A stretch of DNA of 41,432 bases from Prochloraceae cyanobacterium (lineage in GTDB: Bacteria; Cyanobacteriota; Cyanobacteriia; Cyanobacteriales; JASJDA01): NCBI GenBank assembly GCA_030065755.1, contig JASJDA010000049.1:1-41432 (forward strand), written 5' to 3'. The stretch's first letter is position 1; each line of letters begins with the position of its first letter. The notes beneath the pieces are model-generated. The model saw only the letters and a list, made by a program, of their open reading frames with translations. It had not been told where the DNA came from and did no database searches. Below are positions 4,377 through 28,331 of the stretch, in pieces. The position numbers and the translations under genes are program-made.

Positions 4377-5666
4377 TTATTTTTTTATTGGATAAAAACT
4401 AAAGAACCAGGCAGATGCTAAAGCAAAAAGTCCTGCTACAGGAAAAGCCAGTTGTACTCCCCACGGTTGTTCTGGTGTTTTACCCAACATTAGGATTAGA
4501 CCTGCCAACATAGCCCCCAAACCGATACTGCTTTCCGCCAATAGGCCTCTAGTCCCAAAATAAATGGCTTCTCGTCGCAATCCAGTCTGCTTGGCATCTT
4601 CGTCAATCAAATCAGGTAGCATTGCATTTGGCAGAATAAAAAAACCTGCCAATCCTAAACCACTTAAAAATAGTAAAACTAACCAAGGTAGTAAAGCATC
4701 TTCAAATAAAATTGGGCAAATCCCTATTGCCAGAAGTCCACAACCAAACCAAATCATCGAAAGTTGAAAAATGCGTCGCTTCCCCCAATACTTTGCTAAA
4801 AGGTTCACTAGAGGCAATCCCATAGCTGAGCTTCCTAATACAACTGCATTTATGACTGCTCCAAAGCTAATATCTCTATTGAGTAGTGCTACTGCTAGAA
4901 AAGTAGGGCAAATGGTTAAGATGCTAACCGTAACCCATGCACAAGTAATACCTGAGCTATAGCTTCTAAATGATGGGTTATGCCATGCTAATCGCAAAGA
5001 TTTCCAGAAAGTCAGATATTTCTTTTCAACTGGTACTAATTCTTCTGTAACGGCCAAAGGCATTAACAATGTTACAAAACCTATACCTCCAATAATACTT
5101 GCCATTTTGGAAAACCCAAATTGAGAAGTTAGCCATGGCGAACAAATTCCTCCAATAGCTGTTCCCAAAAGAGAAAAAACTGCAATCAGTGTAGAAAGAT
5201 TTACTCTTTCTTTTGGAGTTCTTGCGAGATCTGGTATCCAAGCTAGGTAAGGAACAAAATAGATAGCTAGTGCTAGATAAAACAAGCATAGTATTCCGAT
5301 TAGGTAAACAAAATTGCCAATGGGAACAGAATTTAGAGGGGGAGTAAAGAGCAAAATAAAACAGAATACCAATGGCATAATTCCCACAGCAACAAAAGGT
5401 CGCCTTCGTCCCCAACGACTCGACAATCGATCTGAAAAATGTCCAACAAGAGGCTGAGCGATCGCCCCAAAAACTCGGTTCATAAAAATTGCTGAGCCAA
5501 CTAAAGCCGATGAAACGAGCAAGGGCAGATTGTTCTCATTAGGCACTCCTGGATCGTAACGATATATCAGCATGGTTAACGAGGTATTTATGACTAAATA
5601 TATTCCGAAGCACCCCATTGCATATTTGATTAGTCTAAGCATTTTATTATTTCTAATAGTTACCAA
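4377..5666 (-). CDS. MFS transporter, GPH/sugar-symporter-like
   Basis: A 429-aa polytopic membrane protein with about 12 hydrophobic segments. The N-terminal half carries the MFS loop 2-3 signature in the form GHFSDRLSSRWGRRRPF, characteristic of the glycoside-pentoside-hexuronide (GPH) branch; RREAIYFGTRGLLAE is also typical of that branch. It is the last gene of the minus-strand operon, 55 bp after the glycosyltransferase. In this setting it most likely exports or flips the (glycosylated) product, although GPH proteins are classically sugar:cation importers. Substrate cannot be read from the sequence. No strong terminator was seen; the convergent repeat cluster follows its 3' end. Confidence 0.75.
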   Translation of the reverse strand: MVTIRNNKMLRLIKYAMGCFGIYLVINTSLTMLIYRYDPGVPNENNLPLLVSSALVGSAIFMNRVFGAIAQPLVGHFSDRLSSRWGRRRPFVAVGIMPLVFCFILLFTPPLNSVPIGNFVYLIGILCLFYLALAIYFVPYLAWIPDLARTPKERVNLSTLIAVFSLLGTAIGGICSPWLTSQFGFSKMASIIGGIGFVTLLMPLAVTEELVPVEKKYLTFWKSLRLAWHNPSFRSYSSGITCAWVTVSILTICPTFLAVALLNRDISFGAVINAVVLGSSAMGLPLVNLLAKYWGKRRIFQLSMIWFGCGLLAIGICPILFEDALLPWLVLLFLSGLGLAGFFILPNAMLPDLIDEDAKQTGLRREAIYFGTRGLLAESSIGLGAMLAGLILMLGKTPEQPWGVQLAFPVAGLFALASAWFFSFYPIKK

Positions 5667-6944: not shown

Positions 6945-9900
6945 TCACAGAAACCCTTTACTAATTAGGTAAGAAAAGTAGGTGTCTAGGAGATTCTTGA
7001 TAGAGGGACAAACAAGATCAGTGGCAGCTAGATAATTTAGGGTGTGCTGGCAGTCAAATTTGGGTCTTTGTCCGAGAGTTTCAAACAAAGTCACTCCTTC
7101 AAATATTTGCTCAAAAAAGAGGGGTAATAGTGGATACAAAGGATTTGAATCAGAAGAGAAAGAAAGATTTACTAGCTCCTGTTGCCATTGTTTGTAGGAA
7201 ATCCGCTCAAGGGGGTAGCCATAGGCACAAATCCATTCCGCCATCTGATTCAAGGACACTATTTGGGAATTAACCAAGTGAAAGACTTGCCCTAAGGATT
7301 TTGATTGCTGTGAAAGATAAAAAATGGATTGAGCTACATAATCGACAGGCACCATTTCCACCCAACCGTCTACAAAAGGTATTTTTCCAAGTTGAATTGT
7401 TCCTCGGAGAATGCGACATATAGCATCATCTGTATTCCATTCTCCTGTGTTACTGTGTCCGGTTATGGCACCTGGTCGGTAGATGCAAACGGGAAGACCT
7501 CGCTCACGTGCGATCGCCACTAACTTTTCCGCTACCCATTTGCTCTGAGCGTATCCTCCATAAACCGTTTCACCAGGAGGCAACTGGTCTGTTTCTTTTA
7601 CCACTTCGACATTCGCGTAGTCTACTGAGTCAAAAACTGCCACCGTAGAAATAAAATGTACTGGTTTTACTTTGGTTTGAGAAGCCAATCGTAGAACTTC
7701 TTGAGTACCTAGAACATTGGCGGCTTTAAGTTTGGAGTAAGGGTAAGTAAAGTTGACAAATGCTCCATTATGATAAACTACATCAATGCGATCGCTTAAT
7801 TCTTGAAACTCTTCGGATGAAAGACCCAGAAGTGGTAATGACAAATCTCCCGGTATCGGAAAGATTCGACTACTGAAATCCTTTTCCCAAATTTGGTAGC
7901 CCTCCAGATTTTTCTGAATCTTCTGCTGAGCTGCTTCAGGATTTGGAGAACGGACTAGGCAGTAAATCTTTGCTTGAGTCTGTTGTAGGAGTTCCCGAAG
8001 TAAGAAAGCACCTAGAAATCCAGTAGCTCCAGTCAAGAAAATTGCTTCTGGTTTAATCAGTTGGGTTGATTCCCATTTTGTATCGGGAGTAATTGCTGGG
8101 TCTAAAATAGCTTCAGCATCCAAATCGATGAATGAGCTGGTAGTCTCAATAGCTTCCTCTCCCCGTTGGATAGCCTCAATGGATTGAGCTAATTCTGCCA
8201 CAGTGGAAACATTGAGTAATTCATTCAGTGGTAACTCTACTTGGAAAGCTTTCCGTACCTGAGACATTAGTTGCACTGCTAACAGAGAATTACCTCCCAG
8301 GTCAAAGAAATTGTCTTTTGTGCCTACTTGTTCCAGGCGCAGTATTTTAGCCCATAGATCGACTAATTGCTTCTCCGTATCAGTATTAGGCGGAATAAAG
8401 GGATGTTGTCCCTCAAGGCGATCTCGAAGATATCCGCTCCGCGGTGCGCGTTTCTGTGATTCAATCGCCAGGGAAATTTGCTCGACATCATATAATTGGT
8501 TAGCAATGCGATTAATTAGGATAGATTTAGACTTGATTGGAGCGATCTGTGTTGACTGATGAACTGGTAAATCTTCTTGAGAATTAGTTGGTTGTGGATT
8601 GTAAGCGATCACTTTACAAAAACTGCTGGGAATCACAAAGTTGCAGCCATCTGTCCCCGATTTCTCAAATTGCCCTACCACACTGTTGAGAAAATCTAAG
8701 AGCGGTTGATTTTTCGCAGTCGGTTTGTAAGTAATAACCACCTTACCAAGACCATCGTCAATAGCAATGGCACCCAACTTAGCCAGCATCTGATGTTCCA
8801 CACCTCTGCCTAACACTCGACAACTGAGCAAAAATGTATCTACTTCTAAGATGTCTCCCTTGAAAGCAAAAATTATCGCTCCAACTAAACCATAATCGCC
8901 AAATCGGTCTTTTACATTTACCACGAGGCAGGTGTGTTTCTCTGACTGGCATATGCTTTGGATTTGGCTTTCTGAACGACGAATAGTAGTAGCGTTAAAC
9001 TGATTCGTCCGCTCAGTGAGTTGAGAAACTCTAGAGATTTGATGGGATGCCATTTCCGTAATTTGAACCTGGAGGTTCAAACTCTTGATAAATTCCCTCA
9101 AGGTCAAAGATTGCTGACGCAATTGCTGTCGCTTGACATTTTGCTGATAATGTAATGTTCTTTGCTTGTCTTCCTTGGTGATTTTTAGACGATCAAAAGC
9201 CCAAATATGCTGTAAAAATCTGGGGATAGTATCTGCGTCTTCTGGCAGTTGCAATGTCAAAACCTCCGGATAGTTCGCTTTAACTTCAGCACATTCAACT
9301 GGGTTGTCATCAATGAAAATAAAGCTATCAAGTCCTAGTTGTAATTCTTGGGATATAGATTTCAGGTTTTCTGACTTAGATTGCCAGTTAATCCGCCAGG
9401 AAACTAAATGTTCCCGCTTGAGTAACATATCTTGACGTTGCTCGAATACTTGCAAAACATCATCTTGATTATTTTTGCTGCACAGGCATAGGAGCATACC
9501 ACTATCCTGCTGTGCAACCATAAATTTCTGAAGTGCTTGGTAGGCTGGAGTTATCGCAATTCCATTTGCTCCATCTTCGCCACAAATCCCTTGCCACAGA
9601 GTACGATCGCAGTCGAGAACTATTACTTTGTAAGGGTTTTGGCGAATGGCGTGGATTTTGCGAGCAATGGTAGTTCCCAAGGCCGTAAAGAAAAGTGGTG
9701 TGAAGGGAATGTGACCGAGTTTATCCCCGTGAGAGTCGTAGAATGTTTCAACTGGGTAGGTGGTAGCTAACTCAGTTGTAGTTACCACATACACTCCACT
9801 GACATCAGCTAATTCCACTACTAATTTTGCTTCCATTTTTTGCAGAAATGGAGCACGTTTTTCCGAAGCAATGGTGCTCGGTGAAGCTGGACACACACAA

Positions 9901-12842
9901 AGTAGGTGGGGGATGGTTGTGCGGACTGCTGCTGTCTTGAATGCTTGTATCAGTTTTTGTACATTCTGCTCTATTTGCTGGGCAAAATTAGCTGATGCAA
10001 TTCCATCTTCTTCAAACCTTACCCAATCTTCAAAGCGCACCAAGACAATATTAACGCCCTGTTTGTTTTGAGCTAGCAAGCTATCAGAAGCTAAGAGTTG
10101 TTGGAATACTTGATTATAAGGAGCAAACTCCATCTGCCAGTTTAAATCCAATTCTTGTAGCCAAAAATCTAAAGAATCTGCAACTGGTTCAGTGGTGAAA
10201 GTGGCTGTAATAGCTACCTTAGGAATTGTTACAGTCTCTAAATTCTCTTCTTTTGTCGTGGTTGGTTGAACTTTCTCTAAATTGATTTTAAATTCTAGTT
10301 CTGGAGTTAATTGGAATTGAGTTAGTTGGGTTTGTGGAGACTGAACGCACTGCTCTAGAATTAAGCAATAGGAATTAATTAGTGCTTCAATTGTATCTTC
10401 ATTGAATAAATCTGGGTTATACTCAAATATTCCTCGTAATTCTTCATCTGACTCTGATATTATTAAAAATAAATCTACATCTGTTGTTGCTCTTGTAGCT
10501 TCCCAAATCGGTATCAAGTTCAGATTAGGAGTGCAGATGCTACTAATTTGTTTTCCCAAAAAGCTAAACAAAACCTGAAATAGGCTGTGATTTTCCCGAC
10601 TGCGTTGCAGTTTCGTAGCTTCAACCACCTTCCCCAATGGTATATTTTTGTGATTGTAGGCTGTCAATATGACTTCGCGCACTCGTTGCAACAATTCTTC
10701 AAAGGAGGGATTACCTGATAAATCATTTCGCAGGAGAATTGGGTAAGCAAAAAAACCAATTAGGGATTGCAGTTGAGGGTGAAACCGTCCTGAAGTGGGA
10801 GAGCCAACAACAATGTCTGTTTGTTTGCAACACTTATGTAGTAAAATTTCTAATGCTGTTAGCAGCGTCATGAAAGGAGTCACTTCATGTTCTTCGCTCA
10901 GTTGTTTTAGATAAGACCAGACATTGGCAGGTACTTTAAAGAATTTATGTGCTCCTCGGTAACTGGGAATTACGGGTCTGGGATGGTCAAGAGGTAATTT
11001 TAGTGGTGAAACCCCATCGAGTTGCTTACTCCAGTAAGTTAATCCTGCATCAAGCATTTCTCCTTGTAGCCACTTTCGTTGCCAAACAGCAAAGTCCCCA
11101 TACTGGATATTTAATTCTGGTAGTGGAGATTCCTTACCTTGGTAAAATGCTTCATACAGCGTTGCAAGTTCTTGAATGAATAGATTGACTGATTTCCCAT
11201 CACTAATAGCGTGATGAATTCTCAGCAACAGTACATGCTCAAAATCATCAAGTTGCAGGAGTTTAAAATCAAACAAGGGCTCCCTTTCTAGATTGAAGGG
11301 TTTTTGTGCTTCTTTCTCAACAAATTCCTGGATAGCGGCAGTTTTCTCGCTCAGATTTAAGCCAAGTAAATTTAACTTATCCAAGGTGATATTAATCTGG
11401 GGTACAATAACTTGAACTAGGGAACCTTCAATTATTGTAAAATTAGTCCGCAAGGCTTCATGACGACGTATTATTTCATTGAGACTGCTTTGTAATATCC
11501 CCATGTTCAATTCACCCTTTAACCAAATTGCTTGAGTGATGTTATGAACTGCACCATTGGGAATGAACTGAGCTGCAGCCCAGAGACGTTCTTGTTCGAA
11601 GGATAACGGTAAATTTTCATCTCGTGAGATAGGTACTAGGGCTATGAAATTACTGTTTATATTCTTATTGCTCTGCTTTGTGGGTTCAGATTTTACTGTT
11701 TCTAATAATAAATTTTCAGCATTTTCTAAAGATATTTCTCCTGTTCTCAGCAGAGATAATATTTCTTCGGTATTTTGACCATTATCGATTTTATTTTTAT
11801 CAATAGCTTTTTCTTCTACCACTTGAGCAGTACTTTCTAGCAATACTTTCTCTGCATTATCTAAGGAAATATCACCCGATTGTAATTTATGTAATACCTC
11901 TTCTTGGGTACTCATTTGTTCTTGATTTTTTAGCATTTTTTGTCTCACAGTCGATTGTTCGTTGTTCTTTTCTGATACTGGAGACACTTGCTTTTGAATA
12001 TTTCCTGATTCATTTGACAATATTTGACTCAAATTATGTGGCTTTTGACTAATAGTTGTTTCACTAAAAAAAATCTCAATTTTATTTGCGACTTCTGGTT
12101 GATGAAAGGTTATTTCATGCATATCTAGTTCTTGATTGACAACTTCTGGTAATTTTTCTCTAATTACCGAAGTTAAATGTTTTTTTAAAGTTACTAGAGA
12201 TAATCTAGGTTTTTTTGCTATTTCATTTGCCAAACTATAAGCATAGTTCAGCACATCTTTTCTTGGTACAACTGGAAAAGTAATACCGCGTTTGGCTAAT
12301 TCTTCCCCTCGATAGTTTTGGGCAGTATACATCATTTCTTGTCCTAAGACAGAACCTAATTTTGCAGGTACAACGAACGTACATCCGAATCCAGGCGTGA
12401 AACCATACTTCATAAAATTAGTTGTGTAAATACTTTCTTGACTTAACACAACTAAATCTGCATATAAACCAAACACTAAACCACCACCAATTCCATGACC
12501 TTGCATAGCTGCAATGACTGGTATTTTACAATCTAATAATATTCTGAAAAAATTAAACTCATTAAATTTAATTTCTCTTTGATGAATTTTTATTAATTCT
12601 TCCTTTGTACCTCCCGATGCAAAATAATTTCCATATCCTGTTAGAATAACTACTCTATAGTTATTGTTGTGAGCAACTTTATCAAAACATTTATATAATC
12701 CTTCAATTAGTCCAGGGGAAAAGGTATTGCGGGTTTCTTCATCTTTCATCGTAATTTGAACGACACCATTGCGCAACTCCACCAGTTGTACCACCTCGGT
12801 ATTGCTCTTTGCTGAGTTCATATTAATATTTAGGCTTGCCAT
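6945..12842 (-). CDS. ECH2 - C - FkbH - PCP - thioester reductase megasynthase
   Basis: 1965 aa. (1) Residues 1-260: crotonase of ECH2 type (GHGIGGGLVFG), the decarboxylase of beta-branching cassettes. (2) 300-390: linker with two copies of a helical motif (LQSGDISLDNAEKVLLES and LRTGEISLENAENLLLET). (3) ~410-845: condensation domain with intact HHAISDG (543-549). (4) ~880-1415: FkbH-like region with HAD motif DCDRTLWQG (1077-1085), which in the family dephosphorylates and loads 1,3-bisphosphoglycerate as glyceryl thioester, plus its GNAT-like C-terminal part. (5) ~1485-1560: PCP, LGGNSL with Ser1519. (6) ~1600-1965: short-chain reductase release domain with GATGFLG (1605-1611) and YAQSK (Tyr1764, Lys1768). 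There is no adenylation domain: FkbH occupies its place. Also absent is the ER domain that follows ECH2 in CurF and JamJ. The ATG overlaps the ECH1 stop by 13 nt. Confidence 0.93.
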   Translation of the reverse strand: MASLNINMNSAKSNTEVVQLVELRNGVVQITMKDEETRNTFSPGLIEGLYKCFDKVAHNNNYRVVILTGYGNYFASGGTKEELIKIHQREIKFNEFNFFRILLDCKIPVIAAMQGHGIGGGLVFGLYADLVVLSQESIYTTNFMKYGFTPGFGCTFVVPAKLGSVLGQEMMYTAQNYRGEELAKRGITFPVVPRKDVLNYAYSLANEIAKKPRLSLVTLKKHLTSVIREKLPEVVNQELDMHEITFHQPEVANKIEIFFSETTISQKPHNLSQILSNESGNIQKQVSPVSEKNNEQSTVRQKMLKNQEQMSTQEEVLHKLQSGDISLDNAEKVLLESTAQVVEEKAIDKNKIDNGQNTEEILSLLRTGEISLENAENLLLETVKSEPTKQSNKNINSNFIALVPISRDENLPLSFEQERLWAAAQFIPNGAVHNITQAIWLKGELNMGILQSSLNEIIRRHEALRTNFTIIEGSLVQVIVPQINITLDKLNLLGLNLSEKTAAIQEFVEKEAQKPFNLEREPLFDFKLLQLDDFEHVLLLRIHHAISDGKSVNLFIQELATLYEAFYQGKESPLPELNIQYGDFAVWQRKWLQGEMLDAGLTYWSKQLDGVSPLKLPLDHPRPVIPSYRGAHKFFKVPANVWSYLKQLSEEHEVTPFMTLLTALEILLHKCCKQTDIVVGSPTSGRFHPQLQSLIGFFAYPILLRNDLSGNPSFEELLQRVREVILTAYNHKNIPLGKVVEATKLQRSRENHSLFQVLFSFLGKQISSICTPNLNLIPIWEATRATTDVDLFLIISESDEELRGIFEYNPDLFNEDTIEALINSYCLILEQCVQSPQTQLTQFQLTPELEFKINLEKVQPTTTKEENLETVTIPKVAITATFTTEPVADSLDFWLQELDLNWQMEFAPYNQVFQQLLASDSLLAQNKQGVNIVLVRFEDWVRFEEDGIASANFAQQIEQNVQKLIQAFKTAAVRTTIPHLLCVCPASPSTIASEKRAPFLQKMEAKLVVELADVSGVYVVTTTELATTYPVETFYDSHGDKLGHIPFTPLFFTALGTTIARKIHAIRQNPYKVIVLDCDRTLWQGICGEDGANGIAITPAYQALQKFMVAQQDSGMLLCLCSKNNQDDVLQVFEQRQDMLLKREHLVSWRINWQSKSENLKSISQELQLGLDSFIFIDDNPVECAEVKANYPEVLTLQLPEDADTIPRFLQHIWAFDRLKITKEDKQRTLHYQQNVKRQQLRQQSLTLREFIKSLNLQVQITEMASHQISRVSQLTERTNQFNATTIRRSESQIQSICQSEKHTCLVVNVKDRFGDYGLVGAIIFAFKGDILEVDTFLLSCRVLGRGVEHQMLAKLGAIAIDDGLGKVVITYKPTAKNQPLLDFLNSVVGQFEKSGTDGCNFVIPSSFCKVIAYNPQPTNSQEDLPVHQSTQIAPIKSKSILINRIANQLYDVEQISLAIESQKRAPRSGYLRDRLEGQHPFIPPNTDTEKQLVDLWAKILRLEQVGTKDNFFDLGGNSLLAVQLMSQVRKAFQVELPLNELLNVSTVAELAQSIEAIQRGEEAIETTSSFIDLDAEAILDPAITPDTKWESTQLIKPEAIFLTGATGFLGAFLLRELLQQTQAKIYCLVRSPNPEAAQQKIQKNLEGYQIWEKDFSSRIFPIPGDLSLPLLGLSSEEFQELSDRIDVVYHNGAFVNFTYPYSKLKAANVLGTQEVLRLASQTKVKPVHFISTVAVFDSVDYANVEVVKETDQLPPGETVYGGYAQSKWVAEKLVAIARERGLPVCIYRPGAITGHSNTGEWNTDDAICRILRGTIQLGKIPFVDGWVEMVPVDYVAQSIFYLSQQSKSLGQVFHLVNSQIVSLNQMAEWICAYGYPLERISYKQWQQELVNLSFSSDSNPLYPLLPLFFEQIFEGVTLFETLGQRPKFDCQHTLNYLAATDLVCPSIKNLLDTYFSYLISKGFL

Positions 12843-13606
12843 GGAAATACCCCCTCTTTTTTAAAGCGTTTAATTTTTTCTTGAACAGTAAGATCGGCTA
12901 ACAAACTACAAACTTTGTTGACAGCTAAATCTTGAGTTTCTTGTTGAATAATCCATAACTGATTAATATAGTTTTTTAAATCCTTTACTCCAGATGAGGG
13001 TAAATACTTTAAACGCCGAATATATTGACCAATTAACTGATTAGTATTATTGCCATATTCATCAATTAAGCCCCAGTTATAAGCCTCTGATGCTGAGATT
13101 ACTTGAGTCGTTAGTGCTAAACGGTAGGCTTTTTGAAATCCCACTCGACGAATCAAAAATGGCAATACACAAGCTGGCAATAAACCAAATAATAGTTCTG
13201 ATAAAACAAAGGTGACAGTTTCATCTGCAATAACTAAATCACTTGCTGCTACCAAACCCACTCCCCCTGCTTGTACTTTGCCTCGTACAACTGACAAAAT
13301 CACTTTGCTACTTTGGGACATTTGTTTCAGGATGTTGTAGTAACCATGAGAACTCATTTTTGGATCTACCTGCTTTCCGTCTGCTACTTCTTGAAAATCC
13401 ATTCCTGTACAAAACACATCAGGTAGTCCTTCTAGGATCACCACTTTAACTTTTTCCTCGGCTTCAGCAGCTTGCAAAGCGGACAATAATTCTTGAGTCA
13501 GCTGAGTATTGATGCTATTGTTAGCTTCGGGCCGATATATCTGAATCCTTTGTACAGCATGTTGATGATTAATTTTTAGGGTTTGATAGTCCATAGCTAT
13601 ACCCAC
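12830..13606 (-). CDS. ECH1 enoyl-CoA hydratase-like dehydratase of beta-branching
   Basis: 258 aa crotonase-fold protein, family of CurE/JamI/PksH. It has the oxyanion-hole segments FCTGMDFQEV and GKVQAGGVGLVAASD. In these pathways ECH1 removes water from the HMG-type intermediate on the acceptor ACP, giving the 3-methylglutaconyl form that ECH2 then decarboxylates. The gene is sandwiched between the HMG synthase homologue and the ECH2 domain, the usual order. The frame can start at GTG 13606, overlapping the HMGS stop by 10 nt, or at ATG 13594, two bases after it; the ATG would give MDYQTLK as N-terminus. Assignment as ECH1 rather than ECH2 rests on stand-alone form, position and the separate ECH2-like domain next door. 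Confidence 0.88.
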   Translation of the reverse strand: MGIAMDYQTLKINHQHAVQRIQIYRPEANNSINTQLTQELLSALQAAEAEEKVKVVILEGLPDVFCTGMDFQEVADGKQVDPKMSSHGYYNILKQMSQSSKVILSVVRGKVQAGGVGLVAASDLVIADETVTFVLSELLFGLLPACVLPFLIRRVGFQKAYRLALTTQVISASEAYNWGLIDEYGNNTNQLIGQYIRRLKYLPSSGVKDLKNYINQLWIIQQETQDLAVNKVCSLLADLTVQEKIKRFKKEGVFPWQA

Positions 13607-14856
13607 TCATACTCCCGATGAAATTCCTTAATGGCTTTCAACACTAATCGACCTTTGCCTTCGATATGCTTCCAAACTCTTGGGAAGATTTGATAGTCTA
13701 AAGTCACATTTCGGGTACCAAAGGCAACTGCACTACTGTTTACGAGTAATTGCTCATATTCCTCTATACTTAAGGAATGGCGCTGTGCTAACTGTGTAGA
13801 AATACCGTATTGAGCTTGAATTTCCTTTCCTTCTGGAGTAACAACCCCACTATAAAATTCTGAACAACAACCAGAACCGTAGGAAAATAGACCAATGCGT
13901 CGAGGATTGGTAAATTCCCCGTTGTCAATGGTGCTAGCTAAAGATAAAAGTACCGTTGCTCCCATAATGTTGCCTACCTGTTGGCAATAGACTAATCCAG
14001 GCATCACCCGTCTCTGAAAGTCATTTTCAATCTCAACGGGTTTAGCCCTTTTAAACTTACGCATCATCTTCCTGTGAGCGCCTTTGACCATACCGCCAAA
14101 AGGTGTATGAAAACTCAAGTAATCAAAACTGTTTTGGTAGTCCGCTCTTTCTACCCTGTCTTGATAGTGGAGGTAAGCATTTTCGCAACAATCTAAGTAA
14201 GAAAGTAATGATAAGTCTGCATCTCCTGCTTCTGAATCTGGGGTTGGTCTGCAGGTATCCATTACTTCATAGCCATAGTAACCATTGCAACCCACATCTA
14301 CTTGAAAAATGTAAGGAACATCACTTACTAGAATAGCTACGGCTCCAGCACCACTACTAGCTTCAGCAAAAGAACAATCTTTCAGGCGGGCATCTCCCCC
14401 TTCGGTAACAAAAAACCGAGATATGTCAGTTGCGATCACTAAAGCCTTGGCTCCAGGAGATGTTTGGGACAAAACAAAATTCAATGCCATTTGAAAACCC
14501 GCAGTACCAGAGTAACAAGCTTGTTTAAGTTCAAACATACGGCAATTGCGACTTAATCCTAAATAATCATGAATATAGCTGCTGATAGATTTGCCAAAAT
14601 CTATGCCGGATTCGGTACAAGTAATCACCATTTCAATGCGCTGCTTGTCCGCATCATTTAAGCTGTCAACAATCGGCTTGGCTGCATTCACTGCATAAGA
14701 AACAGGATCCTCGTAAGGCATGGCGACTGTTTTCTCTTTCATCAGTAAATTGTCGAAGCGAGTTCTTTCTAATTGACGAGCTTCTGCTAATACTTGTACA
14801 TCTAGCTTTGCTGCTCCTCCATATACATTGAGAGCTTCAATCCCAACTTGTTGCAT
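13597..14856 (-). CDS. HMG-CoA synthase homologue of the beta-branching cassette
   Basis: 419 aa, the CurD/JamH/PksG type. It condenses acetyl-donor ACP (made by the decarboxylating KS) with the beta-ketoacyl chain on the acceptor ACP to give an HMG-like branch. The catalytic triad is visible: Glu82 in CTESGID, Cys114 in KQACYSG and His250 in FHTPFGG; the last two fall at the same positions as reported for CurD. KQACYSGTAG and FSYGSGCCSEFYSG are family hallmarks. It follows the KS0 gene by 44 bp and overlaps ECH1. Because it sits in a PKS operon with KS0 and two ECH genes, a role in mevalonate synthesis is very unlikely. Confidence 0.95.
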   Translation of the reverse strand: MQQVGIEALNVYGGAAKLDVQVLAEARQLERTRFDNLLMKEKTVAMPYEDPVSYAVNAAKPIVDSLNDADKQRIEMVITCTESGIDFGKSISSYIHDYLGLSRNCRMFELKQACYSGTAGFQMALNFVLSQTSPGAKALVIATDISRFFVTEGGDARLKDCSFAEASSGAGAVAILVSDVPYIFQVDVGCNGYYGYEVMDTCRPTPDSEAGDADLSLLSYLDCCENAYLHYQDRVERADYQNSFDYLSFHTPFGGMVKGAHRKMMRKFKRAKPVEIENDFQRRVMPGLVYCQQVGNIMGATVLLSLASTIDNGEFTNPRRIGLFSYGSGCCSEFYSGVVTPEGKEIQAQYGISTQLAQRHSLSIEEYEQLLVNSSAVAFGTRNVTLDYQIFPRVWKHIEGKGRLVLKAIKEFHREYEWV

Positions 14857-14900: not shown

Positions 14901-16139
14901 CTATTTTCCAATTACTAAAGCTGTATTAATACCTCCAAAAGCAAAACTATTACTTATGGCATATTTAATATCAGCTTCTTTGGCTGTTTCTTTGACCCAA
15001 TTGAATTTGGTATCAATGGGATTAACTAAGTTATTAGTAGGATGACAAAATCCCGCCTTCATTTGCAATAAAGTAGCAATGACCTCTACCACTCCAGCAG
15101 CAGTTAAACAGTGACCTGTTAGAGACTTTGTGGCATTGACTAAACAGTGGGATAGTCCTACAGATTTCAAAGCAGCTACTTCTGTTTTGTCACCTAAAGG
15201 AGAACTAGTGCCGTGGGTATTCACATAGTCAATCTGCTCTGGCTTTAACTCTGCCATAGCTAGAGCAGCATTCATGGCTCGTTCTTCCCCTTTTTGAGAT
15301 GGCTCAGGACTGCGGTTTCCATCTAAACCTAATCCCCAGCCAATGAGTTGTCCATGAGAAACTACTCCCCTTTGTTGAGCATGCTCGGCTTTTTCGAGGA
15401 CAACAACCCCACAACTTTCTCCATAAATAAAGCCATCATGGTCTCGATCAAATGGCCGACAAGCCAGATTAGGAGTATCGGCAAAACGCTCACTACCCAT
15501 AGCTCCTAAATTTTTCAATCCTTGACACTCCCATAGAGATATATCAAACAGAGGTCCAACTGCAATACTCACATCCGCAACCCCCAATTGAATTTGACGA
15601 GCTGCATGAATTAGGGCAATAGAGCCACCAGCAGAAGCCCCAGCTACGCTATAACCTTCTCCTTGAATGTGAAAACATTGAGACAGTAAACTTACCAAAT
15701 CGGTATCCCAAAAAGTCACTCCATAAGTTGGTCTTAAAAATTCAGGCTTATCAGCATAACGTTGCCAGATTTCTTCCTGATAACGTTGTTGGAAATTTGA
15801 CCCGCCTACTACAATGCCTACACGTTCAGGGTTTACTCCCCCAGAAGAAAGTTTTGCATCTTGCCAAGCTTCAGAAACAGCAATGGTTGCGATCTGGGTA
15901 CTCCATGAAGCCGTACGAAGTAAGTTACTATATTCAGGAAATAAAGATTTAGCCTCAATATCTGGAAGTTCTGCTCCCAGAAATGGTTTAAATCCCTGAC
16001 GCCCAGGTCGTTTGAGATAACCAAAATGCGTTTTTCCTGTAAATAGAGCTTCTTGAAAAGTGGCAATATTTTGACCAATTGAAGTAACAATGCCCATACC
16101 AGTTATCTCTATTCTTACTGGATCTGGACTAGATCCCAT
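14901..16139 (-). CDS. Decarboxylating ketosynthase (KS0) with Cys-to-Ser active site
   Basis: 412 aa stand-alone KAS of the CurC/JamG/PksF type. The nucleophile position reads SVAGASAGG, aligning with the STACTSG of condensing enzymes, so the catalytic Cys is Ser169. Both histidines remain: His309 in VNTHGTSSPLGD and His343 in SLTGHCLTAAG. Such enzymes do not condense; they decarboxylate malonyl-ACP to acetyl-ACP, supplying the two-carbon unit for the HMG synthase. The ATG lies inside the last codons of the upstream PKS gene (11-nt overlap), which suggests translational coupling. The likely substrate is malonyl on the third ACP of that PKS, since no separate donor ACP gene exists. Confidence 0.93.
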   Translation of the reverse strand: MGSSPDPVRIEITGMGIVTSIGQNIATFQEALFTGKTHFGYLKRPGRQGFKPFLGAELPDIEAKSLFPEYSNLLRTASWSTQIATIAVSEAWQDAKLSSGGVNPERVGIVVGGSNFQQRYQEEIWQRYADKPEFLRPTYGVTFWDTDLVSLLSQCFHIQGEGYSVAGASAGGSIALIHAARQIQLGVADVSIAVGPLFDISLWECQGLKNLGAMGSERFADTPNLACRPFDRDHDGFIYGESCGVVVLEKAEHAQQRGVVSHGQLIGWGLGLDGNRSPEPSQKGEERAMNAALAMAELKPEQIDYVNTHGTSSPLGDKTEVAALKSVGLSHCLVNATKSLTGHCLTAAGVVEVIATLLQMKAGFCHPTNNLVNPIDTKFNWVKETAKEADIKYAISNSFAFGGINTALVIGK

Positions 16140-19100
16140 GATTTACCTCTAACTTAGCTGCAAATAAATCAGCTAGTTCTCCAATATTCTTAGCTCCAGC
16201 TAATTCAATGAGTTGAATATGTAAATCTAACTCTTCCATAACCATCATAATAATTTCTGCCCTATTCATTGAATCAATCCCTAATTGTTGTAGGCTATCA
16301 GTAGGTTTTAGAGATACTTTTGCTAATTCTGGAACTATGTCATAAGTGTATTTTTTAATAAGTTCAATGATTGGATTATTTTTTATGCTAGATTCTTGTA
16401 AATCATTTTCAGCTTTACTTTGTTGTTTGATTTCTTGAATCATTTGCTTTGCTTCTTGAATAGTTAATTCATGATTTGCAACCTTATTCAGTATGGGACG
16501 TATTTTTTGCCTTATGTCCTCTTGTGATTCTTTAAGTAAATCCAGATTTTGTGGAGATTCTTCTGGAGAATATTGATTAACTTGAGATAATTCATTTCTA
16601 TTTTTAGAATAAATTTCTTCAGTGATGTATTTAGCTAAATCCCATAAGGTAGGATAATCATATAACTTGGTAGCTTTAATATTTAAATTGTAAGTTTGAT
16701 TTATGGTGGTTATCCATTCAACTCCAACGATAGAATCTAACCCTAAATCAATAAATTTCTGGTCTTCTTCTATTTCACTAATCTCTATATACAGGGCTTC
16801 TGCTAATTGTTGTTTTAAAAGCTCCTTGACTTCTAATAAGTTTACCTGAAAGTTATTTGATAGTTGTAAACTTTCTAAAGGTTGCTGATTTTGATTGCTG
16901 ATGTCAACTTCTGTTTGGGAGGATTTTTGGTGATTAACTTGGATATTTTGACCTGGGGTGGATAGGTTTTGAGCGATATATTCTGTCAACTTTAGTAAGG
17001 TCGGGTAGTCATACAATTTAGTTGCCTTAATGTTTAAATTGTAAATTTGATTTATGGTGGTTATCCATTCGACTCCCACAATAGAATCTAACCCTAAATC
17101 AATAAACTTCTGGTCTTCTTTGATTTCACTGATGTCTGCATACAAGGCTTCTGCCAGACTTTGCTTTAGGGTTTCTTTGATTTGAGCAAAATTAACATCT
17201 AAGTTATCTAATCTTGATATATTTGGTGTTTCAGCAATATTTTCTGAATTAAGATCTAAGTTATCTAGTTTTGATACACTTGGTGTTTCCGTAATCTTTT
17301 CAGATTCAACGGCAATATTTTTTGAATTAAGATCTAAGTTATTTAGTTTTGATACACTTGGTATTTTCGTGATATTTTCAGATTCAACGGCAATCCTTTC
17401 TGATAAGGTTTTTTTTAGATAAGGTATATCTCGTAAATAAGGGGATTTTAGCCCCTGTTTAATTGAACGTGAAACCATAACTAATACACTATCTTTATAG
17501 TAACGAGGTAATGTTTTATAGTATCTTGAATGCAATTGAGAATATTTTGATAATAAACCCAATCTTTCCTCGTCCACACGAGTGTCATAATCTACAAGTC
17601 TAATAACAAAAGCACGCCGCAACTTATGTAAACCTGGTTTTAAAGGAACCGATCTGTGTAATACATACTTATTAAAAAATAATACGTCTCCAACTTTATA
17701 CTCATCTTCTTCATAGTTATCTTGAATGGTGTAATCTATTGCTTCTTGCGTGATGTTATTAAGAATAGTATTAGCATTGGCTACATATTCATTCAAATCT
17801 CCTTTTGATTCATCCCATTTGATATTATTTCTTAAATGTAAATCATTAATAGTGTAATAAAAATGACCTGGAAAAGTTTTTGTAGATACATATTGCATAC
17901 CACCTCGATATTCTTTAGTGATTTCATCTAATGGTATCCAGATTGATGCTCCAAAATCTTCTGTTTTTGTAAAAGAAAATGAGCCAACTCCAACGTGCCA
18001 TGGGAATCTACTTTGATTAGGTTCAACTGAAAAAAGAGCATTGTGCATAATCACGATCTTTTTTCCAGTGATGTAATTTAAAAAAGGTAGCTTCCCTTTT
18101 ATTAATGAAGAAACAAAATCGTACTTTACCAAATCATAAGCAGGATATGTTGTATCAATGTCGTCATTTTTCGCTAGTTTTAGTGTTACTTTTTCTTTGG
18201 AAACATTGCTTTCACTTTTAGCACTTTCTAATGTTTCTTGAATTCTTTCTATTTCAGAGAAATTAAAGAAATTTTTAATTTGACAGTATCCTTTATTTTC
18301 ATACTCTCCTTTTAATTTATCGAGTTGTTCTCTGTCGATGAGTTTGAGTTCTTTTATTTTCTCTTTGTCATTTTCTAAAACAGACATTGTCTTTTGAGAG
18401 ACAACATCTTGCTGAGCTAATTGAAGAGGTTCCGAATCCACAGATTTAAACTTCAATTGAACTAATTGTCTTTTAGGTATTTGCTTTAGTGAAGAAGCTT
18501 TGGGGACAGACACTGAATCTAGATTTGATAATGTTATTTTTGGTGCCTCTAAGTTCTGGCTGTGTTTTTTCATTGAAACAAAGTCACTAGTTGATTTTTG
18601 CACTACCTTTAACCCATTTGGTTGAGCAGAGGGACGACTTTCAAGCTTTACTGATGCTACTTTTTTTTCTAAGTTAGACACTTCGGACACCCTATTTGGG
18701 GCGGGTTGAATATCTGTTATCCAATAACGCCGTCGTTGCCAAGGATATGTTGGTAATACCACTTTATTACGGGAATAATCTCCGTCAAACCCTAACCAAT
18801 CAACTTTGACTCCCCGCACATATAATTGTCCCAAACTTTGTAGCATTTGTTGCCAGTCTTCTCGACCAGAACGCAGAGAAGGCAACCAAACTCCTACATC
18901 GTCTGGCAAACACTGCCTTCCCATCCCTAACAAAATTGGTTTGGGTCCAATTTCTAGGAAGACTTCATAACCTTCTTGGTGCAAAGTCTCCATACTTTGG
19001 GCAAACTTGACTGGTTGGCGTACATGGTTTACCCAATAGCTGGCTGTAGCAATACTCTCGTCTGCTCTGGTACCAGTTACATTTGAGATCAGTGGAATCC

Positions 19101-21492
19101 GAGGTTGACTGTAGCTTATTTGATTGGTAATTGCTTTAAAGTCCGCCAACATCGGTTCCATTAAGGGGGAATGGAATGCGTGGGATACTTCTAACTGTTT
19201 TGTCTTGATTCCAAGTGATTTTAAACTGTCCCAAAGCTTACTAATGACTTCTCCTGAACCAGAAATGACAACACTTTCGGGTCCGTTGACGGCAGCTATT
19301 GCCACTTTTTCTGCGTATGGGGCAATCAGTTGATTTACTTTCGACTCTGATGCCATTACAGCTACCATCTCCCCTCCAGAAAGTAACTGCTCCATTAAAT
19401 GTCCCCGATAGGCAATCAGTTTTAATCCATCTTCTAAACTAAATACGCCTGCTATTGTTGCTGCTACATATTCTCCGACACTATGACCCATAACCACATC
19501 TGGTTGAATTCCCCAGGATTGCCATAACGAACCCAAGGCATATTCAATGGCAAATAGTGCTGGTTGAGTATAAGCAGTTTGGTTAATGAGATAACTGTTT
19601 GTTTCTTTACTATTTTCAGGATAAAGAATGTCTAAAATCGATTTTTCTAAATAAGATTGTAGAATTTGCTCGCACTGGTCTAAGGTTCGACGGAAGACAG
19701 GTTGCGTTTCATAAAGTTGTCTTCCCATATTCACATACTGAGAACCTTGTCCAGTAAACAAGAAGGCAATCTTAGGTGATTTACTATTACTAGAAAGTTC
19801 TGCAGAAAATACACCTAATGGTTCTTCTCTGGCACTAATTTTTACTAATTTATCAGCTAATTCTTGTTTGTCAGATGTAATAATCGCTAAACGATGGTTA
19901 AAGTGCGATCGCCCCGTATTGGCAGTAAAACAAATATCTGCGATCGCTGCTGTGGAATTATCAGCTAAAAATTCTTCATAAGATTGTACTAACTCTTGCA
20001 AAGCTTTTTCACATTTAGCAGATAAAGTTAATATATGGTGCGATCGCTCGGTTACTGGATCGATGTTGACTGTTAACTGTTGACTAATAACTGAAAAAGT
20101 TGCTTCTTCTAGGATGATGTGGACGTTTGTCCCACTCATCCCAAAAGTACTTACTCCAGCTAATCTTTTTTCTTCATTAGTTTCCCAGGGAATTAATTTA
20201 GTAGGAACTTTAACAGGTAACTTTTCCCAAGGTATATAAGGATTGGGATTTTTAAAATGTAGATGAGGCGCTATTTGTTGATTTTGCAATTGTAGAATAA
20301 CTTTAATCAAAGATGCAATCCCTGCTGCTGCTTCTAAATGACCAAAATTAGTTTTAACTGAAGCGATATTTAAAGGTCGTGTTGGTAAACGTTTTTCTCC
20401 TAAAATTTTTCCTAATGCTAAAACTTCAATTGGATCCCCTAAAGATGTTCCCGTGCCGTGAGTTTCTACATATTCGATTTCATGGGGTTGTACTTTAGCA
20501 TTTTTTAAAGCCTGTCGTAATACCAATTCTTGAGCAGAGCCATTAGGTGCTGTTAAACCATTACTTTTGCCATCATGATTAACGGCAGAACCTTTAACTA
20601 AAGCTAAAATATTATCACCATCTGCCATGGCATCAGATAATCTTTTTAAGACGATAACACCGCATCCTTCTCCTCTCACATAGCCATTCGCAGACTGATC
20701 GAAAGTTTTGCATCTTCCATCAGGCGCTAAGGCTTTTAACTTGGAAAAACCAATTGTAACTTCTGGGGAAAGCATCATATTTACTCCCCCTGCTAAAGCT
20801 AACTCAGATTCTCCTCGTCGTAAACTATGACAAGCTAAATCAACTGCTAATAAAGAAGATGAGCAACTGGTATCTAAGAAGAAAGCCGGTCCTTGTAATC
20901 CTAAAGTATAACTTAATCTTCCGGCGGCTATACTTCGAGCATTGCCTAAACTACTATAAGCATCAATGGTAGTGGGCTCAATGGATGGAATAGCTAATTT
21001 AGCATAATCTTCAAAACAGATACCCATAAAAACTCCTGTTGATGTGCCTTGGAGCTGATCGGGAGCTATTCCAGCATTTTCTAATGCTTCCCAACTAACT
21101 TCTAAGAGGAATCTTTGTTGAGGATCCATACTTATAGCTTCTCTGGGAGAAATGCCAAAAAATTGCGGCTCAAATTGCTCAACATCGTCCAAAAATCCGC
21201 CATATTTACTATACATTTTTCCTGCTACATCAGGATCGGAATCATAATATTGTTCCACATCCCATCTTTGAGGAGGAATTTCTGTAATAGCATCAACTCC
21301 TTTTTTTAACAGTTGCCAAAATTCTTCGGGATTTTTAACTCCCCTCGGAAAACGACATCCCATACCAATAATGGCAATAGGTTCACTCTTTTGCCGTTCT
21401 ACTTCTTCTAATTGAGTCCGTGCTTGTTTAAGAGCTTGGAGGATCCGTTTTGAGGAAGCTAGGGATTCATTTTGTTGCTCAACTTTCTTCAT
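16129..21492 (-). CDS. PKS: KS - AT - Fe/2OG halogenase - ACP - ACP - donor ACP
   Basis: 1787 aa from ATG 21492, chosen because it starts 1 nt after the upstream stop behind AGGAA; a frame from 21552 would overlap by 59 nt. KS 36-465: Cys210 (DTSCSS), His345, His385. AT 574-870: GHSVGE with Ser671 and HAFH (771-774), i.e. malonyl-specific. No KR, DH or ER. About 1050-1320: Fe(II)/2-oxoglutarate oxygenase fold with WHVG (His1166, Gly1168), distal His1279 and Arg1292/1293/1298. Gly in place of the metal-binding Asp is the halogenase hallmark, as in CurA and JamE. ACP1 (~1440-1507, Ser1470) and ACP2 (~1557-1624, Ser1587) share GLDSIVGVEW, with the Trp typical of beta-branching acceptor ACPs. ACP3 (~1708-1780, Ser1741, GIDSMNRAEI) resembles the acetyl-donor ACPs that are separate proteins elsewhere. 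Acts on the ACP-bound chain from the FAAL protein. Confidence 0.95.
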   Translation of the reverse strand: MKKVEQQNESLASSKRILQALKQARTQLEEVERQKSEPIAIIGMGCRFPRGVKNPEEFWQLLKKGVDAITEIPPQRWDVEQYYDSDPDVAGKMYSKYGGFLDDVEQFEPQFFGISPREAISMDPQQRFLLEVSWEALENAGIAPDQLQGTSTGVFMGICFEDYAKLAIPSIEPTTIDAYSSLGNARSIAAGRLSYTLGLQGPAFFLDTSCSSSLLAVDLACHSLRRGESELALAGGVNMMLSPEVTIGFSKLKALAPDGRCKTFDQSANGYVRGEGCGVIVLKRLSDAMADGDNILALVKGSAVNHDGKSNGLTAPNGSAQELVLRQALKNAKVQPHEIEYVETHGTGTSLGDPIEVLALGKILGEKRLPTRPLNIASVKTNFGHLEAAAGIASLIKVILQLQNQQIAPHLHFKNPNPYIPWEKLPVKVPTKLIPWETNEEKRLAGVSTFGMSGTNVHIILEEATFSVISQQLTVNIDPVTERSHHILTLSAKCEKALQELVQSYEEFLADNSTAAIADICFTANTGRSHFNHRLAIITSDKQELADKLVKISAREEPLGVFSAELSSNSKSPKIAFLFTGQGSQYVNMGRQLYETQPVFRRTLDQCEQILQSYLEKSILDILYPENSKETNSYLINQTAYTQPALFAIEYALGSLWQSWGIQPDVVMGHSVGEYVAATIAGVFSLEDGLKLIAYRGHLMEQLLSGGEMVAVMASESKVNQLIAPYAEKVAIAAVNGPESVVISGSGEVISKLWDSLKSLGIKTKQLEVSHAFHSPLMEPMLADFKAITNQISYSQPRIPLISNVTGTRADESIATASYWVNHVRQPVKFAQSMETLHQEGYEVFLEIGPKPILLGMGRQCLPDDVGVWLPSLRSGREDWQQMLQSLGQLYVRGVKVDWLGFDGDYSRNKVVLPTYPWQRRRYWITDIQPAPNRVSEVSNLEKKVASVKLESRPSAQPNGLKVVQKSTSDFVSMKKHSQNLEAPKITLSNLDSVSVPKASSLKQIPKRQLVQLKFKSVDSEPLQLAQQDVVSQKTMSVLENDKEKIKELKLIDREQLDKLKGEYENKGYCQIKNFFNFSEIERIQETLESAKSESNVSKEKVTLKLAKNDDIDTTYPAYDLVKYDFVSSLIKGKLPFLNYITGKKIVIMHNALFSVEPNQSRFPWHVGVGSFSFTKTEDFGASIWIPLDEITKEYRGGMQYVSTKTFPGHFYYTINDLHLRNNIKWDESKGDLNEYVANANTILNNITQEAIDYTIQDNYEEDEYKVGDVLFFNKYVLHRSVPLKPGLHKLRRAFVIRLVDYDTRVDEERLGLLSKYSQLHSRYYKTLPRYYKDSVLVMVSRSIKQGLKSPYLRDIPYLKKTLSERIAVESENITKIPSVSKLNNLDLNSKNIAVESEKITETPSVSKLDNLDLNSENIAETPNISRLDNLDVNFAQIKETLKQSLAEALYADISEIKEDQKFIDLGLDSIVGVEWITTINQIYNLNIKATKLYDYPTLLKLTEYIAQNLSTPGQNIQVNHQKSSQTEVDISNQNQQPLESLQLSNNFQVNLLEVKELLKQQLAEALYIEISEIEEDQKFIDLGLDSIVGVEWITTINQTYNLNIKATKLYDYPTLWDLAKYITEEIYSKNRNELSQVNQYSPEESPQNLDLLKESQEDIRQKIRPILNKVANHELTIQEAKQMIQEIKQQSKAENDLQESSIKNNPIIELIKKYTYDIVPELAKVSLKPTDSLQQLGIDSMNRAEIIMMVMEELDLHIQLIELAGAKNIGELADLFAAKLEVNHGI
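16621..17175 (-). repeat. Duplicated tandem acceptor-ACP segments
   Basis: ACP1 (16972-17175) and ACP2 (16621-16824) are near copies, differing at roughly 14 of 70 residues and identical over the core around the phosphopantetheine serine. They are linked by about 50 Q/N/S-rich residues. Duplicated acceptor ACPs are known to raise flux in beta-branching modules. Confidence 0.85.
17188..17391 (-). repeat. Three in-frame ~20-30-residue linker repeats
   Basis: Between the halogenase domain and ACP1 the protein carries three degenerate copies of a segment containing PSVSKLDNLDLNSENIA, with spacers such as VESEKITET (residues about 1368-1435). The DNA repeats as well (for example GATCTAAGTTAT plus TTTGATACACTTGGT on the plus strand). 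It looks like a flexible, slippage-prone linker rather than a fold. Confidence 0.7.
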
Positions 21493-21493
21493 G

Positions 21494-25980: not shown

Positions 25981-26060
25981 AAATTAATTGGACATTCTTG
26001 TTGCGGTAGGTTATCGACTACGCCGAGGGTTTTCGGTGATGAAGAATGTCCAATTTATTT
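25981..26060. mobile_element. 80-bp palindromic element (MITE-like)
   Basis: Terminal inverted repeats AAATTAATTGGACATTCTT (25981-25999) and, on the other strand, AAATAAATTGGACATTCTT (26042-26060) match at 18 of 19 positions and flank a ~42-bp core that itself contains CGCCGAGGGTTTTCGGTG. Non-coding. It has the same size and layout as the palindromes at 32391-32474 and 33493-33578, though different ends. Confidence 0.55.
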
Positions 26061-27596: not shown

Positions 27597-28331
27597 ATGT
27601 CACTTGCAAATATTTTTGATAATCTAAAAGTAATTTACCATCTTGTTAAACCAAATAAAGGCAAGACTCATCAGGAAAGATTAGAAAATTTTTATAAAGA
27701 ACAAGCACAATATTATGATGCTTTTCGGAAAACTCTACTAAAAGGAAGAGAAGATTTATTCGAGTCCCTAGTTACCGATGCGGAAGGTATTTGGATTGAT
27801 ATGGGGGGTGGTACTGGAGCTAACTTTGAATGCATAGCCAAACAGCTAAATAAGTTCCAGAAAATTTATATTGTCGATCTATCTACTTCCTTATTAGAAA
27901 TAGCTCAACAACGGATCGCTAAAAATAAATGGAATAATGTCGAGACTATCGAAAGAGATGTTACTCAATTTGTTCCCTTAGAAGGGGCTGCGGATGTGGT
28001 CACATTTTCCTATTCTCTTTCTATGATGGAAAACTGGTTTGAGATAATCGATCGCGCATACCAACTACTCAAACCTGGAGGAGTAATTGGTGTAGTTGAT
28101 TTCTATGTATCGCGCAAACACCCAGAACCAGATTTTGTTTCTCACTCTTGGTTAACTCGTAACTTTTGGACGATCTGGTTTGCTACAGATAACGTATTTC
28201 TGTCTCCAGATCGTTTAGCCTACCTTCACTATCGCTTCGATAAGGTAACTCGTATCGAGAAGATGGCAAAATTATCTTTTCCCCCTGGTTTTAAAGCACC
28301 CTATTATTTATTTATTGGTCGCAAAAACTGA
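27597..28331 (+). CDS. btaB: BtaB-like N-methyltransferase
   Basis: 244 aa class I SAM methyltransferase. Motif I is WIDMGGGTGANFECIA, the acidic end of strand 2 is IYIVDLS and the post-motif region is LLKPGGVIGVVDFYVS. The N-terminal YKEQAQYYDAFRKTLLKGRE and the C-terminal PEPDFVSHSWLTRNFWTIWF segments are typical of BtaB, which trimethylates the homoserine amine of the BtaA product. It sits 26 bp after btaA and 29 bp before the next gene. If it alone performs all three methylations, the PEMT-like domain of the following gene would be redundant or act elsewhere. Confidence 0.83.
   Translation: MSLANIFDNLKVIYHLVKPNKGKTHQERLENFYKEQAQYYDAFRKTLLKGREDLFESLVTDAEGIWIDMGGGTGANFECIAKQLNKFQKIYIVDLSTSLLEIAQQRIAKNKWNNVETIERDVTQFVPLEGAADVVTFSYSLSMMENWFEIIDRAYQLLKPGGVIGVVDFYVSRKHPEPDFVSHSWLTRNFWTIWFATDNVFLSPDRLAYLHYRFDKVTRIEKMAKLSFPPGFKAPYYLFIGRKN

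What the first reader, a model, noticed from the sequence alone, without database searches (positions are those of the whole stretch)
8500..10400. FkbH domain in the adenylation-domain position of a C-PCP-R module
Residues ~880-1415 of the terminal megasynthase are FkbH-like (DCDRTLWQG at 1077-1085), placed between an intact condensation domain (HHAISDG) and a PCP, with no A domain. FkbH proteins normally supply loading modules or free ACPs (methoxymalonate, tetronates). Here the glyceryl unit would be an internal extender whose only nucleophiles are hydroxyls, so the C domain would have to form an ester.
Basis: partly seen in the sequence, partly recalled or inferred. Interest (0 to 1): 0.9.

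Follow-up and report, generated by a model that had tools for sequence, protein, structure and literature searches.

The report
Glycerate-loading ester-forming reductive termination module
A cyanobacterial assembly line that looks built to chlorinate a fatty-acid-derived chain ends in a unit that seems to load a three-carbon glycerate, join it to the chain through an ester and cut the product loose by reduction, a new combination of two known tricks that may make an unusual decorated glycerol lipid.

Summary
P0001 (window 6945-12842, minus strand, 1965 aa) reads ECH2-C-FkbH-PCP-R. The FkbH part is complete (N-terminal NEX part, HAD phosphatase, GNAT-like acyltransferase; TIGR01686 319 bits, cut-off 147), sits where an A domain would, and there is no A domain. 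The ester inference is supported indirectly: internal C-FkbH-T modules whose C domain makes an ester are already described (vioprolide characterised; corramycin by analogy), and in trees this C domain falls in a strongly supported clade of cyanobacterial C domains nearly all followed by FkbH. So FkbH in the A position is not new.

Unusual is the combination: an intact C-FkbH-T followed by a reductase (malleicyprol BurF has only C-NEX-T-Red), fed by a curacin/jamaicamide-type chlorinating beta-branching cassette, with a glycerolipid-type glycosyltransferase in the same operon and the genome's only BtaA betaine-lipid gene divergently beside it. The C-FkbH-PCP-R order recurs in Nostoc punctiforme NIES-2108 and Niallia taxi, and split over two genes in Rhodococcus. 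I favour a decorated acyl ester of glycerol or glyceraldehyde; a gamma-hydroxymethyl butenolide is the main rival. New variant of a known kind; no biochemistry was done.

The parts
6945..12842 (-). P0001, 1965 aa: ECH2-linker-C-FkbH-PCP-R
12057..12797 (-). ECH2 decarboxylase domain (CurF-type)
   Evidence: PDB 2q2x CurF 325 bits
10278..11627 (-). Condensation domain, HHAISDG at 11196-11216
   Evidence: PF00668 E 3e-95; coordinates
9648..10232 (-). FkbH N-terminal NEX part
   Evidence: model matches 3slr; coordinates
9153..9638 (-). FkbH HAD phosphatase part, DCDRTLWQG at 9588-9614
   Evidence: TIGR01686
8613..9152 (-). FkbH acyltransferase (GNAT-like) part, SCRVLGRGVE at 8796-8825
   Evidence: TIGR01686; GNAT fold matches
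8163..8387 (-). PCP, GGNSL at 8283-8297
   Evidence: PF00550
6948..8057 (-). Thioester reductase R, TGATGFLG and YAQSK
   Evidence: TIGR01746 375.6 bits
12830..13606 (-). P0002 ECH1
   Evidence: NF005498 320 bits over cut-off 250
13597..14856 (-). P0003 HMG-CoA-synthase-like (HCS)
   Evidence: PF08540, PF01154
14901..16139 (-). P0004 discrete KS of the HCS cassette
   Evidence: NF005490 570 bits over cut-off 445
16129..21552 (-). P0005 KS-AT-halogenase-ACP-ACP-ACP; halogenase 17353-18372, last ACP of the discrete-ACP type 16147-16374
   Evidence: CurA 3nnf 564 bits; NF005502 99.7 bits over 79
21494..25429 (-). P0006 FAAL-ACAD-ACP
   Evidence: PF00501, PF00441, PF02770, PF02771, PF00550
5722..6840 (-). 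P0007 glycosyltransferase of the MGDG-synthase / diacylglycerol glucosyltransferase type, 104 nt downstream of P0001
   Evidence: PF06925 29.5 bits over 25; PDB 4wyi E 1e-25
4377..5666 (-). P0008 GPH-type MFS transporter
   Evidence: PF13347 169 bits
26371..27570 (+). P0011 DUF3419/BtaA-like, divergent from the assembly line
   Evidence: PF11899 375 bits, profile 7-383 of 385
27597..28331 (+). P0012 SAM methyltransferase, possible BtaB role
   Evidence: PF08242 58 bits; role from position only
28361..30172 (+). P0010, C-terminal PEMT-like methyltransferase part
   Evidence: PF04191 29.1 bits over 25
30173..31447 (+). P0013 MFS exporter
   Evidence: PF07690

Best explanation
The C-FkbH-PCP-R end of P0001 is a glycerate-loading, ester-forming, reductively releasing termination module. 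Proposed steps: (1) FAAL loads a fatty acid and the ACAD domain oxidises it; (2) KS-AT adds one malonate and the HCS cassette with the CurA-type halogenase installs a chlorinated beta-branch, most likely chlorovinyl because there is no ER; (3) FkbH takes a phosphoglyceryl group from 1,3-bisphosphoglycerate, dephosphorylates it and loads D-glycerate on the PCP; (4) the C domain transfers the chlorinated acyl chain to a glyceryl hydroxyl, forming an ester; (5) R reduces the glyceryl thioester, releasing an acyl ester of glyceraldehyde or, after four-electron reduction, an acylglycerol; (6) the remaining hydroxyl is glycosylated by P0007 and possibly etherified and methylated by the divergent BtaA/BtaB-like enzymes. 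Shown by sequence: domain content, order and catalytic motifs. Inferred: every chemical step. My estimates: steps 3-4 0.8, reductive release 0.85, acylglycerol-type end product 0.45. The score below is for steps 3-5 taken together, the end product left open.
For: Complete FkbH with all motifs and fold. The same C-FkbH-T build is reported to load glycerate and form an ester in vioprolide (PMC8949500; PMC10099666). The window C domain is in a clade of seven, six followed by FkbH, support 100/94 and 98/94 in two trees. BurF, C-NEX-T-Red, makes an ester then an aldehyde by its Red domain (PMC12304814). R motifs intact. C-FkbH-PCP-R recurs in L040 and L197. Halogenase and HCS cassette are curacin/jamaicamide type. 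P0007 is in the same operon and is closest to diacylglycerol glycosyltransferases.
Against: No loading, ester or product was measured. Ester- and amide-forming C domains cannot be told apart by the motif used, and my trees held no named reference C domains. FkbH-partnered C domains are not one clade overall. The bta genes are linked by position only, across a 941-base gap with an inverted repeat, and are absent from 14 chosen relatives. P0007 homologues also sit in a FAAL-PKS cluster where I detected no FkbH.
Confidence: 0.7

Rival explanations
1. BurF-like reductive butenolide: C acylates the glyceryl 2-OH, R makes the aldehyde, and the alpha-carbon of the acyl chain condenses with it to a 3-substituted 5-(hydroxymethyl)butenolide carrying the chlorovinyl chain; P0007 then glycosylates the hydroxymethyl. 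This shares steps 3-4 with the best explanation and differs in the fate of the aldehyde.
For: BurF does this with its own hydroxy acid (PMC12304814). A beta,gamma chlorovinyl thioester leaves an activated alpha-CH2. The Niallia cluster has no KR or DH before the same module, so it would feed a beta-ketoacyl chain.
Against: In N. punctiforme NIES-2108 DH and cMT precede the module, which would leave no alpha-CH2. The glycerolipid-type neighbours fit an acylglycerol at least as well. The esterified position is unknown.
Confidence: 0.3
2. The FkbH domain loads something other than glycerate, or no longer loads, and the C domain works on an acceptor supplied in trans.
For: Reduced forms exist: L037 has C-NEX-AT with no HAD domain, and BurF keeps only NEX and receives its acid from other proteins (PMC12304814).
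Against: All three FkbH parts and their motifs are intact and no other acceptor-loading domain is in the operon.
Confidence: 0.1
3. The divergent BtaA operon is an unrelated betaine-lipid island that happens to lie beside the cluster, and P0007 alone decorates the product.
For: BtaA-family genes occur in 19 of 146 sampled genomes of the phylum; the gap is 941 bases, AT-rich, with an inverted repeat; an integrase gene lies in the window; none of 14 chosen relatives has the family.
Against: It is the only such gene in the 8.46 Mb genome, and lipid-head-group type genes lie on both sides of the cluster.
Confidence: 0.5

Closest known systems
Vioprolide VioA (FAAL-ACP-C-FkbH-T), also proposed for corramycin
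   Same: FkbH in the A position after a C domain, with glycerate joined to a fatty acyl chain by an ester (PMC8949500, PMC10099666). Architecture also seen in two Myxococcaceae-family loci, L179 and L180.
   Different: Continues as an NRPS instead of a reductase; no chlorinating HCS cassette. The C domains of L179/L180 do not group with the window's.
Malleicyprol BurF terminal module (C-NEX-T-Red)
   Same: C domain forms an ester on a T-bound hydroxy acid and a reductase releases an aldehyde (PMC12304814).
   Different: BurF has only the NEX part and its acid is loaded by BurJ/BurH; the window keeps HAD and AT. Not compared by sequence here.
Curacin and jamaicamide HCS-halogenase cassettes
   Same: KS-AT-Hal-ACPs, KS, HCS, ECH1, ECH2 in the same order; CurA halogenase 564 bits, CurF ECH2 325 bits.
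   Different: No ER, no further PKS module; ECH2 is fused directly to C-FkbH-PCP-R, unlike the five other loci found.
C-FkbH-PCP-R modules of Nostoc punctiforme NIES-2108 (L040) and Niallia taxi pMEGANia (L197)
   Same: Same domain order; L040 FkbH 61%, R 52%, C 45% identical; L197 FkbH 45%.
   Different: Other upstream PKS parts; no chlorinating HCS cassette detected. No product is known to me for either.
Aeruginosin-type FkbH loading modules (suomilide, dysinosin)
   Same: FkbH loads glycerate on a PCP in cyanobacteria (PMC8609519, PMC13122637).
   Different: Loading modules, so no upstream C domain acylates the glyceryl unit.

Membership tests
FkbH-like glyceryl transferase/phosphatase | Match to the family model above its curated cut-off | tested here: met
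   TIGR01686 318.9 bits, cut-off 146.65
FkbH-like glyceryl transferase/phosphatase | HAD motif DxDxT, acidic motif and conserved acyltransferase cysteine | tested here: met
   DCDRT, IDDNP and SCRVLGRG present; invariant in 16 aligned domains except parts of the acidic motif
FkbH-like glyceryl transferase/phosphatase | Loads a glyceryl unit from 1,3-bisphosphoglycerate onto a carrier | not testable with these tools
   needs an enzyme assay
VioA-type C-FkbH-T module | C, FkbH and T in this order with no A domain | tested here: met
VioA-type C-FkbH-T module | C domain forms an ester with the glyceryl unit | not testable with these tools
   indirect support from clade membership only
VioA-type C-FkbH-T module | Common descent of the C domain with VioA-architecture C domains | tested here: not met
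   L179/L180 C domains fall apart from the window clade; they are long-branched, so this is of limited weight
BurF-type ester-plus-reductase module | C, T and terminal reductase with intact GxxGxxG and YxxxK motifs | tested here: met
   TGATGFLG and YAQSK
BurF-type ester-plus-reductase module | NEX part without HAD and AT; acid loaded in trans | tested here: not met
   HAD and AT are present
BurF-type ester-plus-reductase module | Aldehyde closes to a butenolide | not testable with these tools
   needs product analysis
Curacin/jamaicamide chlorinating HCS cassette | CurA-type halogenase with HxG metal motif, HCS, ECH1 and ECH2 | tested here: met
Curacin/jamaicamide chlorinating HCS cassette | ER domain after ECH2 | tested here: not met
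   linker of 143 residues with docking-like repeats instead
BtaA/BtaB betaine-lipid synthesis (neighbours) | Full-length DUF3419/BtaA match | tested here: met
   PF11899 375 bits, profile 7-383 of 385
BtaA/BtaB betaine-lipid synthesis (neighbours) | Acts on the assembly-line product | not testable with these tools
   position only

The most novel reading that the evidence does not exclude
A thiotemplate route to glycerolipids: FkbH-PCP-R supplies the glycerol backbone from glycolysis by loading glycerate, accepting a chlorinated acyl chain through an ester and reducing the carboxyl to the third glycerol carbon, so that diacylglycerol-type head-group enzymes (P0007, BtaA/BtaB) finish a glyco- or betaine-type natural product.
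Probability: 0.25. Interest if true: 0.85.

Novelty: new variant of a known kind. Interest (0 to 1): 0.6.

Why it matters
It joins two mechanisms so far described apart, glycerate esterification by C-FkbH-T and reductive release after ester formation, in one intact module; the BurF authors suggested that BurF may have lost such FkbH parts. It gives a testable system for C-domain ester formation on a hydroxy acid. If the product is an acylglycerol, it would be an assembly-line route to glycerolipids. The chlorination cassette predicts a chlorine isotope pattern that makes the metabolite searchable by MS.

Tried and rejected
Chance or frameshift artefact: rejected, one open frame with C, FkbH, PCP and R each over its cut-off. 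FkbH in the A position as categorically new: rejected from the literature and from other loci. Cyclopropane formation as in curacin: unlikely because no ER is present. Honaucin as the product: the literature look gave no link. AlphaFold of P0010 without an alignment: pLDDT 38, not used. A conserved bta-FkbH association: not found in 14 genomes. P0010 homologues: none in 166 other genomes of the order, none in plasmids. P0011 (BtaA-like) matched no solved structure. P0007 as proof of a glycerol acceptor: weakened by homologues in a FAAL-PKS cluster with a UDP-galactopyranose mutase gene. Regiochemistry of ECH2 from two aligned residues: suggestive only. Literature search for FkbH with glycerolipid gave no paper; the library holds only open-licence papers, so absence is weak. 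BurF was named but not fetched.

Full report
What is there. The window is one contig (C362) of an 8.46 Mb genome in 455 contigs. Its nearest relatives in the searches are cyanobacteria. Seven genes on the minus strand from 25429 down to 5722 overlap or lie at most 104 nt apart: P0006 FAAL-ACAD-ACP; P0005 KS-AT-halogenase-ACP-ACP-ACP; P0004 KS; P0003 HCS; P0002 ECH1; P0001 ECH2-C-FkbH-PCP-R; P0007 glycosyltransferase. P0008, a transporter, follows after 55 nt.

The observation. TIGR01686 matches residues 1072-1393 of P0001 with 318.9 bits against a cut-off of 146.65. DCDRTLWQG lies at 1077-1085 and HHAISDG at 543-549. Pfam finds C, PP-binding and NAD_binding_4 and no AMP-binding domain. The model of residues 870-1410 (mean pLDDT 89) aligns to 3slr over 341 residues at Z 32 and, in its C-terminal part, to GNAT acyltransferases at Z about 15-16. 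The DxDxT, TNQF, FGDYG and SCRVLGR motifs are kept.

The substrate line. The halogenase scores 564 bits against CurA 3nnf and keeps the HVG motif. It is rare: 1 of 386 genomes sampled across the phylum and 6 of 391 in the order, own genome included. ECH2 scores 325 bits against CurF. In the five other loci with this halogenase ECH2 leads into a further PKS module, with an ER-like stretch before it in four (the ER was recognised by reading the sequence, not by a profile). Here there is none, and the two ECH2 positions that I take to be CurF Y82 and K86 (from my knowledge of that structure and the alignment) are E and I; the other non-curacin loci also differ there. Jam ECH2 makes a beta,gamma-enoyl (chlorovinyl) product and Cur ECH2 an alpha,beta-enoyl product (PMC3252866). 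A chlorovinyl branch is therefore likely but inferred.

Ester formation. Vioprolide, cystomanamide and corramycin are described with FkbH in the A position, and for vioprolide the C domain is reported to form an ester with the glycerate (PMC8949500; PMC10099666). I found C-FkbH-PCP modules in several cyanobacteria with NRPS, TE or R partners, and C followed by FkbH in Bacteroidota, Paenibacillus, an Aminicenantes MAG and Myxococcaceae-family genomes. In two trees (89 and 72 rows) the window C domain lies in a clade of seven, six followed by FkbH and one (L055) by a non-canonical AMP-ligase region, support 100/94 and 98/94. Over all rows the FkbH-partnered C domains are clustered but not one clade: the starred branches force at least 6 and 5 label changes, so the pairing arose or was lost several times. 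The trees used C domains from the fetched loci and no named ester- or amide-forming reference set, so this supports a dedicated partner and does not prove ester chemistry.

Release. R keeps TGATGFLG and YAQSK. BurF, C-NEX-T-Red, forms an ester and then an aldehyde that closes to a butenolide; its authors suggest BurF may have lost the HAD and AT parts of FkbH (PMC12304814). The window module is such an arrangement with those parts intact. The C-FkbH-PCP-R order recurs in N. punctiforme NIES-2108 (L040) and, with a KS and carrier domain in front, on a Niallia taxi plasmid (L197); on a Rhodococcus plasmid C-FkbH and R lie on neighbouring genes (L198). Niallia would feed an unreduced beta-ketoacyl chain, which suits a butenolide; N. 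punctiforme has DH and cMT upstream, which does not.

Neighbours. P0007's best solved relative is MGDG synthase (E 1e-25), with a diacylglycerol glucosyltransferase second. The divergent operon starts with a full-length DUF3419/BtaA protein, 375 bits, the only one in the genome. 19 of 146 sampled genomes of the phylum have the family, none of 14 chosen relatives (same genus, or holding related modules or cassettes). BtaA transfers the aminocarboxypropyl group of SAM in betaine lipid synthesis (PMC10491745; its diacylglycerol acceptor is from my own knowledge). It is followed by a methyltransferase, a protein with a PEMT match (29.1 bits over 25) that has no homologue in 166 other genomes of the order, and an MFS exporter. 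Both flanks thus hold lipid-head-group type enzymes, which is why I prefer an acylglycerol-type product. The weak points: the link of the bta genes is by position, the gap holds an inverted repeat, P0007 homologues occur in a FAAL-PKS cluster without a detected FkbH, and no such genes lie among the N. punctiforme neighbours examined.

Verdict. A new variant of a known kind: VioA-like glycerate esterification fused to BurF-like reductive release behind a chlorinating HCS cassette. Shown: domain content, order, motifs, predicted fold, clade. Inferred: substrate, ester, reduction, product and the role of the neighbours.

Noticed in passing
L037:8218-14526 (minus): A cyanobacterial C-NEX-AT-PCP module with the HAD phosphatase part absent while the acyltransferase motifs remain, a reduced form different from BurF.
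   Followed up: partly
L047:4567-6468 and L151:4654-6555: A C domain close to the window's, followed by a NEX part that stops early; truncated gene or assembly break. The two loci look like the same contig (11121 bases).
   Followed up: partly
window 16147-16374: The third ACP of P0005 matches NF005502 (99.7 bits, cut-off 79), a family of discrete carrier proteins; the HCS donor ACP may be fused here rather than separate.
   Followed up: no
window 472-2289: Subunit A-like V/A-type ATPase gene in a stretch of GC about 0.50, against about 0.39 for the gene cluster.
   Followed up: no
window 39849-40556: Phage-type integrase (PF00589), so the region may be mobile.
   Followed up: no
window 25987-26053: Inverted repeat ATTGGACATTC...GAATGTCCAA in the AT-rich gap (GC 0.29) between the assembly line and the bta-like operon, possibly a mobile-element relic.
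   Followed up: no
L199:5102-26277: Nostoc sp. UHCC 0926 plasmid pn1: FAAL-PKS cluster with two P0007-like glycosyltransferases (57% and 46% identical), UDP-galactopyranose mutase, methyltransferase and an MFS gene; product unknown to me.
   Followed up: partly
L055:9779-20380: Symploca sp. SIO1C2: a C domain in the window's clade followed by a non-canonical AMP-ligase region rather than FkbH or a standard A domain.
   Followed up: partly
L197:8005-20797: Niallia taxi megaplasmid: compact cluster of TE, FAAL-PCP, AT, KS-PCP-C-FkbH-PCP-R and a ketopantoate-reductase-like gene.
   Followed up: partly
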